Notes under the pieces: model-generated | What the model saw: only the letters and a program-made list of their open reading frames with translations | What the model was told of the DNA's origin: nothing | Databases searched by the model: none | Source: Planctomycetota bacterium | Lineage (GTDB): Bacteria > Planctomycetota > UBA1135 > GCA-002686595 | Length of the DNA: 19,637 bases | Reading direction: 5' to 3' | NCBI GenBank assembly: GCA_027623615.1 | Contig: JAQBVH010000001.1 | Location: 1-19,637 of the forward strand | In this document: positions 10,075 through 19,637 of the stretch, piece by piece | Layout: each line of letters opens with the position of its first letter | Position numbering within the stretch: the first letter of the stretch is position 1 | Program-made: the position numbers and the translations under genes

Positions 10075-10089
10075 GCAAGGGATGTGCCA
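10075..10089 (-). promoter_or_regulatory. Sigma-54 promoter of the fliO-flhA-fliA operon
   Basis: On the minus strand the sequence TGGCAC-ATCCC-TTGC matches the -24/-12 consensus at every key base. The GG and GC doublets are separated by exactly 10 nt. The predicted start of transcription is near 10063, about 3 nt before the fliO ATG. Sigma-54 promoters need an enhancer-binding activator; a candidate is encoded at 16117-17481. Confidence 0.85.
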
Positions 10090-10245: not shown

Positions 10246-11301
10246 ATGACCTCAGCGAGCCTGAGATTCCTCGTATTGCTCCTCATCCCCGGGGCCGCCG
10301 CGGGCCAGACCTGCGACTCGTTCGTTGAGGGCTTCGACCTGTTCCAGAACGAAGGTGGATGGGTCTGGAGCGGCACGTTCCAGGCCAGCGTCAGCGCCGG
10401 CGGAGTGCCGACCTGGCACGTCTACAGCGAGCCGCTGCACATGGCGCTGCCGAGCTTCCGGTCGACGCAGCCCGCGCCCCCGTTCACGGGCGACTACCGC
10501 TCGGCGGAGGTCACCTCGCTCGGCCTCGACCTGCAGTCGTTCACCATCGACGCGGCTGCCTGCCTGCGCCCCCTCTCCCTGGTGCTCAGCTCCGACCAGG
10601 GCACGAGCGACCCGAGCGACGACCTGATCGTGACCCAGGTCAGCTCGCAGGCCCTGCCCTGCGCGGATGGGACCTGGCACAGCTTCACCCTCGAGGTGCC
10701 CTCGCGCGAGTCGACCCTCCCGCTCGGTTGGCGGGTGGAGCAGAGCTCGCTGCCCGATGACGACGCGACGTGGAACGCGCTGATCACGGACGTGACCCAC
10801 GTGCGCTGGTCCCTCGGCGACCCGCTCGAGACCGCGGGGCCGACCGACTGGCGCATGGGCGCGGACAACGCGCGCGTGGCCTACGGCGGCGGGCCGACGA
10901 GCTATTGCGTCTCGAAGACGACCAGCGCGGGCTGCAGCCCGGGCCTGACCTGGATCGGGCGCCCGAGCGTGAGCAGCGGCGCGTTCGTCATCCATGCCAA
11001 CCAGATGATCACCGGGCAGGCGGGCCTGTTCTTCTACGGCTTCGCCGCCTCGGGTGCGCCCTTCATGGGCGGGACGCTGTGTGTCGCCGGCCCGCACACG
11101 CGCACCCCGGTCATGCCAGCCCAAGGCGCGGACAAGTGCTCGGGGCGCGTCTTCTGGAACGCTGGCGACGACATCCAGTCGGGTTCGAACGCAGCCCTCG
11201 CGGTCGGTGCGACCGTCTACGCGCAGGCCTGGGGTCGCGATCCACAGGGCACGGCGGGGTCGAGCCTCTCGAACGCGATCCGCTTCACGATCTGCCCTTG
11301 A
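10246..11301 (+). CDS. Secreted protein, beta-sandwich (laminin-B-like) plus Cys-bearing C-terminal domain
   Basis: The 351-residue product starts with a signal peptide (MTSASLRFLVLLLIPGAAAG, cut before QTCDSF). Residues of about 20-210 look like a beta-sandwich of the laminin-B/lectin-like type (GDYRSAEVTSLGLDLQSF, LSLVLSSDQG, ALITDVTHVRWSLGDP, DWRMGADNARV). Residues of about 214-351 form a second domain with spaced Cys (SYCVSKTTSAGC, GLFFYGFAASGAPFMGG, CSGRVFWN, AIRFTICP) that I recall as widespread in secreted planctomycete proteins. It is predicted to be exported to the surface or medium. It lies between two flagellar blocks and is transcribed in the opposite direction to both, so a flagellar role is not implied. 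The ATG at 10246 is preferred because it begins the signal peptide; no strong ribosome site is seen. Confidence 0.85.
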   Translation: MTSASLRFLVLLLIPGAAAGQTCDSFVEGFDLFQNEGGWVWSGTFQASVSAGGVPTWHVYSEPLHMALPSFRSTQPAPPFTGDYRSAEVTSLGLDLQSFTIDAAACLRPLSLVLSSDQGTSDPSDDLIVTQVSSQALPCADGTWHSFTLEVPSRESTLPLGWRVEQSSLPDDDATWNALITDVTHVRWSLGDPLETAGPTDWRMGADNARVAYGGGPTSYCVSKTTSAGCSPGLTWIGRPSVSSGAFVIHANQMITGQAGLFFYGFAASGAPFMGGTLCVAGPHTRTPVMPAQGADKCSGRVFWNAGDDIQSGSNAALAVGATVYAQAWGRDPQGTAGSSLSNAIRFTICP

Positions 11302-16116: not shown

Positions 16117-17481
<1,365 letters not shown>

Positions 17482-17867: not shown

Positions 17868-17882
17868 TGGCACCGGCATTGC
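17868..17882 (+). promoter_or_regulatory. Sigma-54 promoter of the pseudokinase/REC-ATPase operon
   Basis: TGGCAC-CGGCA-TTGC is a full match to the -24/-12 consensus, with GG and GC 10 nt apart and a T before TGGCAC. The expected start of transcription is near 17894, leaving a 20-nt leader before the ATG at 17914. Together with the site at 10075-10089 it places this operon in the same sigma-54 circuit as the export genes. Confidence 0.85.
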
Positions 17883-17913
17883 GCCCCGCACTGTCGGCAA
17901 ACGCCACCTCGCC

Positions 17914-18531
17914 ATGTCCGTCACCAACCTCGATCTTCCCAAGAGCCCTGAGCTCGCGTTCGTCCTCGAGCGCTGCCTGGCCGGTCCCCTGCGCGCCGTC
18001 GTGGCTGCGCTCGGCGCCGAAGACGGACGCCTCGATGGCCCGCGCTCCTCCCTGGAGGAGGTCCTGCGCCAGGCCGAGGCCACGGTCGACCTGTTCGCCT
18101 GCCGCGGCCTGACCGACGACAACACCAGCCTGCGCGAGCTGGCCTGGTGCGCCCGCGCCCTGGTCCCGATCAGCCAGCGCGAGTCCGTCTGGATCGCGAC
18201 CGAGCCCGGCGGCGCGACCATCGTGACCGACGCCCCCGCCTGCTCGCGCGCCCTGGCCGCTTACCTGATGCGCGCCGTCCGCGCGGGAGGAGAGGTCCTC
18301 CTGCACGGCCACCAGGCGGACGGGACGAGCACCTTCGCGATCGTCGACGACCTCAGCGCGAGCGAGGACGTCCTCGGCCGCGCGCGCACGAGCGAGGACA
18401 GCCTCGAGCTGTGGCTCGCACGCGCGGACCTCGAGCGCCTGGGCGCCCAGGCCACCGAACACAGCGCGGGCCCGCACCGCTGCACGACGATCCGCATCCC
18501 CAACCAACCCTGCAAGGGAGAGCTCCGATGA
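17914..18531 (+). CDS. Degenerate histidine kinase-like protein (no phospho-His)
   Basis: The 205-residue protein can be laid over the core of a FlrB/FleS/NtrB-type histidine kinase. Residues of about 11-90 resemble the two dimerisation helices: RCLAGPL at 20-26 stands where HEIRNPL would be, so Arg replaces the phosphorylated His. SSLEEVLRQAEATVDLFACR forms the second helix. Residues of about 91-197 follow the order of an ATPase domain, but the N-box Asn is replaced (YLMRAVRAG, 117-125), the glycines of the DxGxG box are gone (IVDDLSAS) and no G2 box is seen. It should neither bind ATP in the usual way nor phosphorylate. It has no signal or membrane segment, so it is cytoplasmic. The start ATG at 17914 is 20 nt after the predicted sigma-54 transcript start, and it overlaps the next gene as ATGA. 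The assignment is by eye. Confidence 0.7.
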   Translation: MSVTNLDLPKSPELAFVLERCLAGPLRAVVAALGAEDGRLDGPRSSLEEVLRQAEATVDLFACRGLTDDNTSLRELAWCARALVPISQRESVWIATEPGGATIVTDAPACSRALAAYLMRAVRAGGEVLLHGHQADGTSTFAIVDDLSASEDVLGRARTSEDSLELWLARADLERLGAQATEHSAGPHRCTTIRIPNQPCKGELR

Positions 18532-19490
18532 GGGTCCTGCTCGTCGAGGACGACCGCGCGGTCGCCGAGGGACTCGCCCTGGCGCTGAGCCAGAGCGGCC
18601 ACGAGGTCGTGCACGCTGCCAGCGCCGAAGAGGCCCTCCTGCACAAGGAGTGCGACGTGCTCGTCGCCGACCTGGGCCTGCCCGGGATCAGCGGCCTCGA
18701 GCTGATCGCCCAGGTGCGCGCCCGTGGCGAGCACCCGCGCATGATCGTGATGACCGGCTCGCCGCACCTCGAGGACTGCCGCCGCGCGATGCACCTGGGC
18801 GCCCACGACTTCCTCACCAAGCCCTTCGCGATGGAGGAGCTCGTACGCGTCGTCGAGGCCGAGCCGATCCAGTGGCCGCACCGGGAGGCGACCCAGTCCC
18901 GGGTCTACACCGTCGACGAGCACACCTCCGACCTGGCTGCGCGCGAGGTCGGCGCCTACGCCATGCGCTGCGCGGTCTCCCCCGCCGCGCGCACTCGCAT
19001 CGCGACGACCTGCAGTGAGCTGGTCGACAACGTCGAGCGCCACGCCTACCCCGGCGCCTGCGGCGGCCAGGTGCGCGTCAGCGTGACCCTCGACCAGCGC
19101 CAGCTGCGCCTGACCGTCGAGGACGATGGCGCTGGCTTCGACCCGCTGGCCGAGGACCTCGATCACCTCAGCGACTGCCGCGCGGGTGGCCTGGCCCGCG
19201 CCTCTTGCCTGGCCGAGGACATGGCCATCGAGTCCGCACCCGGCGCCGGCGCCCGCATCGTCGCTCGTTTCCAGGTCGCGCGCGCCCTCTTCGACGAGGA
19301 GGAGCAGGTCGACCTCTCCGAGCTGGACTTCCTGACCCCCGACGTGACGCGTCAGGTCCTGGCTGCCTGCCAGGACGACCCGGACGGAGCCTCGCGCTTC
19401 GTGCTCTCTCCCGCGCTCGCTGTCTCTCTCGGCCGGCTGCTCGCCGGTCCCGACCCCCGGCGCGTGCTCCGCACCGCCCTCTGGAGCTGA
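18528..19490 (+). CDS. Response regulator with RsbW/SpoIIAB-like ATPase output domain
   Basis: This 320-residue protein has a receiver domain at 1-112 (acidic pocket E7/D8/D9, phospho-acceptor Asp48 in VADLGLP, Thr76, Lys98 in LTKPF). A GHKL ATPase domain of the anti-sigma kinase type (RsbW/SpoIIAB) follows at about 128-245: N-box ELVDNVERHAY with E164 and N168, G1 box DDGAGFD at 199-205, and a glycine-rich later part (RAGGLARAS, APGAGARI). The last about 70 residues (ELDFLTPDVTRQVLAA, LSPALAVSLGRLLAGPD) form an unrecognised tail. RsbW-type domains phosphorylate or bind anti-anti-sigma partners; here the activity would be set by phosphorylation of the receiver. ATG at 18528 with AAGGGAG upstream, overlapping the pseudokinase gene by 4 nt. 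The next gene starts 2 nt after its stop. Confidence 0.9.
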   Translation: MRVLLVEDDRAVAEGLALALSQSGHEVVHAASAEEALLHKECDVLVADLGLPGISGLELIAQVRARGEHPRMIVMTGSPHLEDCRRAMHLGAHDFLTKPFAMEELVRVVEAEPIQWPHREATQSRVYTVDEHTSDLAAREVGAYAMRCAVSPAARTRIATTCSELVDNVERHAYPGACGGQVRVSVTLDQRQLRLTVEDDGAGFDPLAEDLDHLSDCRAGGLARASCLAEDMAIESAPGAGARIVARFQVARALFDEEEQVDLSELDFLTPDVTRQVLAACQDDPDGASRFVLSPALAVSLGRLLAGPDPRRVLRTALWS

Positions 19491-19492
19491 CC

Positions 19493-19637
19493 ATGGCACT
19501 CGAGGACTTCGACGAAGCCGGCGACGAGCTGGAACTCGACCTGGACCAGCTGGACCTGTCGCCCGCGGCCGGGATCGACCTGGACGATCCCCTGAACGAG
19601 GACCTGTTCGACTTCCCTGTGATGGCGGTCTTCCAGA
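19493..19637 (+). CDS. Start of an acidic protein (3' end outside window)
   Basis: Only 48 residues are visible. They are strongly acidic, with a repeated Leu/Asp pattern (ELELDLDQLDLS, GIDLDDPLNEDLFDFP) before VMAVFQ, where a folded domain may begin. The ATG at 19493 follows the REC-ATPase stop by 2 nt and has GGAG about 7 nt upstream, so it belongs to the same operon. No family can be assigned. As third gene after a pseudokinase and an RsbW-like protein it could be their target, for example an anti-sigma antagonist, but the visible part does not show this. Confidence 0.7.
   Translation, partial: MALEDFDEAGDELELDLDQLDLSPAAGIDLDDPLNEDLFDFPVMAVFQ

What the first reader, a model, noticed from the sequence alone, without database searches (positions are those of the whole stretch)
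17868..19637. Sigma-54-driven operon of pseudokinase, REC-RsbW ATPase and acidic protein next to flagellar genes
A perfect sigma-54 site precedes three tightly linked genes: a histidine kinase relic, a receiver fused to an anti-sigma-type ATPase, and an acidic protein. Partner-switching modules that act on flagellar sigma control are known, for example HsbR/HsbA acting through FlgM in Pseudomonas, but this gene combination is not one I know. No FlgM is recognisable here, so the module could take over control of FliA or of the sigma-54 activator. The sequence shows the domains and promoter; the circuit is inference.
Basis: partly seen in the sequence, partly recalled or inferred. Interest (0 to 1): 0.75.

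Follow-up and report, generated by a model that had tools for sequence, protein, structure and literature searches.

The report
Pseudo-kinase switch that outlives its flagellum
In one family of Planctomycetota bacteria, a worn-out sensor kinase and an ATPase-type regulator sit at the head of a flagellar operon, and the ATPase regulator has repeatedly been kept, beside a DNA-binding activator, after the flagellum was lost, so it probably works through that activator and does more than run the flagellum.

Summary
In detail: a perfect sigma-54 site (17868-17882) precedes a degenerate histidine kinase (G1), a receiver plus SpoIIAB/RsbW-type ATPase (G2) and the start of an acidic protein (G3), cut by the contig end. 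In relatives the operon continues G3-X1-X2-PAS kinase-NtrC2-flgB-flgC-fliE-fliF; G2 and fliF lie 7.1-8.7 kb apart in 39 of 39 same-contig genomes. The FliA inference is not supported: relatives have an intact kinase/NtrC2 pair in the operon and a FlgM beyond the window's left edge. G2 is not tied to the flagellum: 10 of 11 FliF-less genomes at least 85% complete keep it, from four losses on the NtrC2 tree. All ten such loci have G2 next to NtrC2 (seven also G1); G3, X1, X2 and, fragments aside, the kinase and flagellar genes searched are gone, and FliA is absent in 3 of 3 genomes tested. There NtrC2 keeps its DNA-binding helix while its receiver and, in two genera, its sigma-54 loop decay. Closest known: LvrB/LvrC of Leptospira. 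Best reading: a decayed LvrB/LvrC-like pair that acts on NtrC2 and a non-flagellar regulon; direct contact is inferred.

The parts
16117..17481 (+). NtrC1, NtrC-type activator upstream of the operon (start uncertain, 16039 or 16117)
   Evidence: Sigma54_activat E 6.5e-66, receiver, HTH_8; receiver Asp and GAFTG intact in the window
17868..17882 (+). sigma-54 promoter element TGGCAC-N5-TTGC of the operon
   Evidence: p<=0.01 at the same place in 12 of 36 flagellated loci
17914..18531 (+). G1, degenerate histidine kinase (DHp + CA fold, His and N-box Asn lost)
18528..19490 (+). G2, receiver + SpoIIAB/RsbW-type ATPase + C-terminal extension; receiver Asp, Thr and Lys present in the window
18534..18854 (+). 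G2 receiver domain (residues 3-109)
18933..19274 (+). G2 Bergerat ATPase domain (residues 136-249)
19290..19487 (+). G2 C-terminal extension (about residues 255-320), ends in ALWS
   Evidence: alignment and table; helices in the model
19493..19637 (+). G3, 5' part of the acidic, membrane-type protein; cut by the contig end
19598..19615 (+). EDLFDF motif of G3

Best explanation
G1 and G2 descend from a two-protein pathway: a soluble histidine kinase (G1) and a response regulator with an anti-sigma-type Bergerat ATPase as output (G2), built like LvrB/LvrC of Leptospira. In this planctomycete family the pair sits at the head of the basal-body operon, which in relatives also encodes an intact PAS kinase and its activator NtrC2. 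Most likely G2 works on NtrC2: its ATPase domain binds the activator and adjusts its activity, as NifL does with NifA, while G1 is kept in most species as a binding partner and not as an enzyme. The circuit governs genes beyond the flagellum, which is why G2 and NtrC2 (and G1 in three of four genera) stay when the flagellum is lost. Shown here: domains, promoter, operon order in relatives, decay of G1, co-retention after four losses on the NtrC2 tree, purifying selection in three of the four genera, conservation of the NtrC2 DNA-binding helix. Inferred: physical contact of G2 with NtrC2, the direction of control, the regulon, and the presence of NtrC2 in the window's own organism.
For: 10 of 11 FliF-less genomes at least 85% complete keep G2. 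In all ten loci read, NtrC2 is the next gene after G2 or is parted from it only by a kinase fragment (L167); seven have G1; nfA and nfC, which flank the flagellar cluster elsewhere, are both on the stretch in eight of ten. No match to G3, X1, X2, FlgB, FlgC, FliE, FliF, FliG, FliA, FlhA, FliC or FliD in the ten loci, while three flagellated control loci match. Four changes on the NtrC2 tree, 4-4 in bootstraps. dN/dS 0.07-0.32. NtrC2 keeps 30-32 of 32 conserved helix-turn-helix columns. FliA absent in 3 of 3.
Against: No interaction could be tested. The ATPase is closest to anti-sigma factors, so a sigma factor may be the client. 15 of 64 flagellated genomes score no G2 (at least one, G093, has a divergent copy) although they have FliF, so G2 is dispensable. 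G1 is lost in genus g22. In g5 and g22 NtrC2 has lost its sigma-54 loop, so it cannot be governed there as an ordinary activator. The window's own genome gives no NtrC2 orthologue.
Confidence: 0.47

Rival explanations
1. G2 is a true anti-sigma factor for a sigma-70-family factor other than FliA, as proposed for LvrC; NtrC2 stays beside it as part of the same circuit, not as its binding partner.
For: ATPase closest to SpoIIAB (1.2e-12) and RsbW (2.6e-10); full-length structural match to LvrC; other sigma-70-family hits at 28-37% identity exist in the flagella-less genomes.
Against: Does not explain why NtrC2 of all flagellar-operon genes is retained with G2; no sigma gene was recognised beside G2 in the loci read.
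Confidence: 0.28
2. [quoted passage not shown]
For: FliA is in the window; SpoIIAB's client, sigma-F, belongs to the same broad sigma group (recalled).
Against: FlgM-like genes in relatives; G2 kept in three genomes without FliA; G2 scored absent in 15 of 64 genomes with FliF.
Confidence: 0.07
3. G1-G2 are relics on the way out, and their survival after flagellar loss is passive.
For: G1 His in 4 of 31 loci, G2 receiver Asp in 18 of 42; NtrC1 without receiver Asp in 16 of 26 and without GAFTG in 8 of 26 gene calls.
Against: dN/dS 0.07-0.32 in three flagella-less genera; full-length frames in several species per genus; the kinase between G2 and NtrC2 was removed while both neighbours stayed.
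Confidence: 0.12
4. HsbR/HsbA-type partner switch with a STAS protein encoded elsewhere.
For: Receiver plus kinase/anti-sigma domain in one protein, as in HsbR (PMC6482189, passages).
Against: No PP2C domain in G2; no STAS match among the operon proteins scanned.
Confidence: 0.06

Closest known systems
LvrB/LvrC of Leptospira (PMC13269768, passages; PDB 9qih)
   Same: LvrC is a receiver joined to an RsbW/SpoIIAB-like Bergerat domain and is phosphorylated by a histidine kinase; best full-length structural match of G2 (E 1.1e-16, 304 columns), and a profile match over residues 5-181.
   Different: G1 is degenerate in most loci, G2's receiver Asp is often lost, G2 has a conserved C-terminal extension, and the pair lies in a flagellar operon beside a sigma-54 activator.
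NifL/NifA (PMC9866876, passages)
   Same: A GHKL-domain protein that controls a sigma-54 activator by binding, without use of ATP hydrolysis.
   Different: NifL has PAS domains and no receiver; the fold group of G2's ATPase is the anti-sigma type; binding is not shown here.
HsbR/HsbA, CrsR/CrsA (PMC6482189, passages)
   Same: Receiver plus kinase/anti-sigma domain, link to motility.
   Different: HsbR has a PP2C domain and a STAS partner; G2 has no PP2C and no STAS neighbour was found in the operon proteins scanned.
FlrBC/FleSR-type flagellar kinase/activator pair (recalled)
   Same: The PAS kinase and NtrC2 downstream in relatives have this form.
   Different: They are not G1/G2, and NtrC2 outlives the flagellum here.
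RetS, DivL (non-canonical kinases; roles recalled)
   Same: Fold of G1; kinases that act by contact.
   Different: No sensor or hybrid parts in G1; no target shown.

Membership tests
LvrC-type receiver/anti-sigma response regulator | Receiver followed by a Bergerat ATPase, no PP2C | tested here: met
LvrC-type receiver/anti-sigma response regulator | Phosphorylated by a partner kinase on the receiver Asp | tested here: inconclusive
   Asp present in the window, absent or altered in 24 of 42 rows including the same-genus L114; neighbouring G1 lacks the His
LvrC-type receiver/anti-sigma response regulator | Sequesters a sigma factor | not testable with these tools
   no complex prediction or binding assay; unknown sigma for LvrC too
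Active histidine kinase (G1) | Phospho-acceptor His in the first DHp helix | tested here: not met
   Arg in the window; His in 4 of 31 loci (L135, L138, L147, L157); L116 and L156 not covered by the gene call
Active histidine kinase (G1) | N-box Asn for ATP binding | tested here: not met
   Arg in the window; Asn in 10 of 31 loci
HsbR-type partner switch | PP2C phosphatase domain | tested here: not met
   Pfam scan of G2
HsbR-type partner switch | STAS antagonist partner | tested here: inconclusive
   none among the operon proteins scanned; genome not searched
NifL-type anti-activator | Encoded with a sigma-54 activator | tested here: met
   NtrC2 in the same operon or next to G2 in relatives; not seen in the window's own genome
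NifL-type anti-activator | PAS domains | tested here: not met
NifL-type anti-activator | Inhibits the activator by binding | not testable with these tools
   needs biochemistry or complex modelling
FlgM anti-sigma-28 | FlgM domain PF04316 in G1, G2 or G3 | tested here: not met
   Pfam scans of G1 and G2 and of G3 orthologues

The most novel reading that the evidence does not exclude
An RsbW/SpoIIAB-type ATPase has changed its client from a sigma factor to a sigma-54 activator: G2 holds NtrC2 as an anti-activator, with a dead kinase as scaffold. After loss of the flagellum the complex lives on, and in two genera NtrC2 has lost its sigma-54 loop and become a sigma-54-independent DNA-binding regulator, still governed by G2, of an unknown non-flagellar regulon.
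Probability: 0.32. Interest if true: 0.8.

Novelty: new variant of a known kind. Interest (0 to 1): 0.6.

Why it matters
Repeated loss of the flagellum works as a natural experiment that shows which regulators belong together. If the reading is right, the clients of RsbW-type ATPases include sigma-54 activators, a two-component pair can be kept for its contacts after its chemistry has gone, and a flagellar regulator of Planctomycetota has a second job that can be found by mapping NtrC2 sites in species without flagella.

Tried and rejected
The genome-contig scan with full-length G2 gave matches over the receiver part (query residues 1 to at most 180); its loci L034-L113 were not used. NtrC2 in the window's own genome: only paralogues up to 48% identical. 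FlgM in the own genome: none, as expected if the contig ends before it, but the genome is 72% complete. Correlated decay of NtrC1 and G2 is suggestive by eye, but only 2 independent pairs on supported branches (3 on all) were available, so it is not used as evidence. The sigma-54 site as a universal feature: rejected, 24 of 36 flagellated loci have no match at p<=0.01 (in L123 only 62 bases could be searched; L158 none). G3 as a partner of G2: rejected, G3 is present in flagellated loci without a recognised G2 (L148, L174, L175, L176) and not found in the ten flagella-less loci. Wider spread: of 294 phylum genomes, matches outside two families of one order cover the ATPase part only; the second genome of the outgroup family is. 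Literature searches (open PMC papers, listings) showed no account of this operon; PMC12316311 (passages) reports sigma-54-dependent motility genes in Planctomycetia in general. PMC9927559 was seen as abstract and outline only and is not used.

Limits: genes in fetched loci come from a home-made codon-model finder with uncertain starts, so a missing N-terminal receiver or helix may be a start error; 12 G1 genes were also entered by hand by position; L165/L166 genes were taken from tblastn. Dropped before counts: a G1 candidate in L120 (tail of NtrC1), a duplicate L165 fragment, short NtrC2 fragments. A5 contains the G001 and G030 FlgM rows, so only the G016 hit (8.1e-11) is independent of it; the G001 gene scores PF04316 at E 0.016, under the cut-off. 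The NtrC2 tree stands in for a species tree. dN/dS could not be computed for g7 (one genome), and its controls are from g22 alone. The presence table was compared by hand and is not corrected for kinship. Most genomes are drafts. G2's domain arrangement is uncertain (pTM 0.63). In some flagella-less loci other genes or remnants also lie between nfA and G1 (L147; a 563-residue gene before G1 in L167 and L168; lipoA-like in g22).

Full report
What is in the window. The window is a complete contig (19,637 bases) of a draft genome, 72% complete in 847 contigs. The family belongs to Planctomycetota: G016's 6,902,109-base contig matches the record of Engelhardtia mirabilis. On the minus strand lie flhA, flhB, fliR, fliQ, fliP, fliS, fliD and two flagellin genes (Pfam over cut-off), fliA (TIGR02479 over cut-off), flhF (SRP54 over cut-off; FlhF model under its cut-off); fliO and flhG are my reading from order and weaker matches. 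On the plus strand lie NtrC1, G1, G2 and the first 48 codons of G3. A perfect sigma-54 site ends 32 bp before G1; the only other perfect site ends 15 bp before fliO. In 56 sequences scanned, 16 perfect sites (TGGCAY form) had a gene start on the same strand within 350 bp; all 16 lie before G1/G2 (8) or fliO (8). Sites without such a gene were not listed.

What the proteins are. G1 has no Pfam match by itself, but orthologues do: L135, L147 and L157 match HATPase_c, and HisKA at or below its cut-off; a profile of 30 matches KdpD, ZraS and KinB; the window protein is predicted with mean pLDDT 88.9 and its fold matches ZraS, KdpD, RetS and DivL. The His survives in 4 of 31 loci and the N-box Asn in 10 of 31. 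Of the two outgroup loci, L157 has His, N-box Asn and G2 box, L138 has the His but not the Asn, so the ancestor was probably, not certainly, an active kinase. G2 is a receiver plus an ATPase closest to SpoIIAB and RsbW. The ATPase Asn is kept in 39 of 42 rows (L155 and L173 lack it, L158 is a fragment), the receiver Asp in 18 of 42; 12 of 42 end in LWS. Its best full-length structural match is LvrC of Leptospira, a receiver joined to an anti-sigma domain and phosphorylated by the kinase LvrB (PMC13269768, passages). G3 orthologues have [DE][DE]LFxF near the N-terminus in 29 of 29 scanned and one strong hydrophobic segment; the outgroup L138 keeps only DDLF.

What follows beyond the contig end. 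In relatives the operon reads G1-G2-G3-X1-X2-PAS kinase-NtrC2-flgB-flgC-fliE-fliF-fliG; FlgB, FlgC and FliE models are over cut-off, FliG under it (E 2e-54), FliF and the PAS kinase by Pfam. X2 has TPR matches over cut-off, X1 only weak ones; signal peptides and an STN-like start of X1 are my reading. The PAS kinase has HE[IL V]RNP in 28 of 29 gene calls, the other a fragment, and NtrC2 has its receiver Asp and G[AS]FTG in every flagellated gene call that covers them. G2 and FliF are on one contig in 39 of the 49 genomes with both, 7,096 to 8,686 bases apart in all 39. Not all flagellated relatives keep the order: G1 is missing before G2 in several loci, L174, L175 and L148 have G1 without G2, L176 has neither.

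FlgM. PF04316 is over its cut-off in 6 of 61 relatives and at E<=0.1 in 22. In the five relatives read (G001, G011, G017, G024, G030) the gene lies on the opposite strand between lipoA and nfA, adjacent to lipoA in three, with two genes between in G001 and three in G030. The G001 gene scores under the cut-off (E 0.016). A custom model found one more in G016 (8.1e-11) and none in the four flagella-less genomes tested or in the window's own genome. The window begins inside lipoA, so a missing FlgM is explained by the contig edge; it is not shown to exist in this organism.

Flagellar loss as a test. All 81 family genomes held were searched: G2 in 61, FliF in 64, both in 49, G2 alone in 12, FliF alone in 15, neither in 5; no association (Fisher p 0.75; kinship not corrected). 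Among FliF-less genomes at least 85% complete, 10 of 11 keep G2; the exception is G086, whose flagellated congener G019 also lacks it. Loci of all ten were read (g5: L121, L169; g7: L147; g22: L115, L170, L171; g61: L165-L168). In nine NtrC2 is the next gene after G2; in L167 a 197-residue kinase fragment lies between. Seven have G1, the three of g22 do not. nfA and nfC, the genes found on the two sides of the flagellar cluster in flagellated relatives (nfC with IspG in 5 of 5 checked), are both present in eight of ten. tblastn with G3, X1, X2, FlgB, FlgC, FliE, FliF, FliG, FliA, FlhA, FliC and FliD queries found nothing at E<=1e-6 in the ten loci, with a FliP remnant in L147 and the kinase fragment in L167 as the only leftovers; three flagellated control loci matched. 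NtrC1 queries hit only NtrC2 and G2 there. The NtrC2 copies fall inside the NtrC2 clade and the flagella-less state needs four changes on the careful tree, 4-4 in bootstraps, which I read as four losses. FliA is missing in the three genomes tested; sigma-54 is present in 15 of 15 tested. Pairwise dN/dS is 0.07-0.10 in g22, 0.14-0.20 in g61 and 0.26-0.32 in g5, against 0.056 and 0.070 for two g22 control genes.

What decays and what stays. After flagellar loss NtrC2 keeps 30-32 of 32 conserved helix-turn-helix columns (flagellated 15-32, the low value a truncated gene), while the receiver (17-41 of 44; flagellated 39-44) and AAA part (89-143 of 150; flagellated 139-149) erode; GAFTG is gone in g5 and g22, changed to GAFIG in L166, and Walker B is altered in g22 and L169. 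L147 is nearly intact throughout, as for a recent loss. A sigma-54 site at p<=0.01 is found in 12 of 36 flagellated loci and 0 of 10 flagella-less (L165 p 0.045); in g61 the best matches of all four loci lie at -46, imperfect, where the flagellated sister L172 has a perfect site at -43. The trio is thus two things: G2, mostly with G1, which goes with NtrC2, and G3, which goes with the flagellum.

Reading. G1-G2 most likely act on NtrC2 and, through it, on genes other than flagellar ones. A GHKL protein that controls a sigma-54 activator by binding is known (NifL/NifA; PMC9866876, passages). The receiver is intact in the window, so phosphorylation is possible there, but it cannot be general. 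The main rival is a sigma factor other than FliA as the client of G2. HsbR/HsbA (PMC6482189, passages) differs by its PP2C domain and STAS partner. What is shown is co-retention and constraint; contact and direction are inference. On re-checking, 'one gene beyond lipoA' for FlgM was mended and confidence lowered slightly (0.5 to 0.47) because lineages with other genes before G1 make the deletion picture less simple.

Noticed in passing
window 10075-10089 (-): A second perfect sigma-54 site, 15 bp before fliO; perfect sites before fliO also in L116, L118, L119, L122, L124, L128 and L161.
   Followed up: partly
window 16117-17481; L114-L156: NtrC1 decays across the family: 16 of 26 gene calls have no receiver Asp and 8 of 26 no GAFTG, several in loci where G2 is lost or degenerate.
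   Followed up: partly
G000 C318 and C85; 14 other genomes: Two sigma-54 genes in the window's genome and in G001, G016, G011, G071, G005, G069 and G007, one in the seven g22 and g61 flagella-less genomes.
   Followed up: no
L165-L168, 46 bases before G1: Imperfect sigma-54-like sites at one fixed position in four flagella-less genomes, as if the promoter had decayed after flagellar loss.
   Followed up: partly
window 19493-19637; L114 10001-13443: G3, X1 and X2 look like a membrane/periplasmic TPR set special to this flagellar operon; [DE][DE]LFxF of G3 is a likely binding motif of unknown partner.
   Followed up: partly
window 19476-19487: G2 ends in ALWS; 12 of 42 orthologue rows end in LWS, among them both outgroup loci.
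   Followed up: no
window 10246-11301 (+): A 351-residue gene between fliO and the fliS operon with no Pfam match and no relative among the first 26 loci.
   Followed up: no
L115, L170, L171 (g22): A lipoA-like gene also survived flagellar loss next to G2 in this genus.
   Followed up: no
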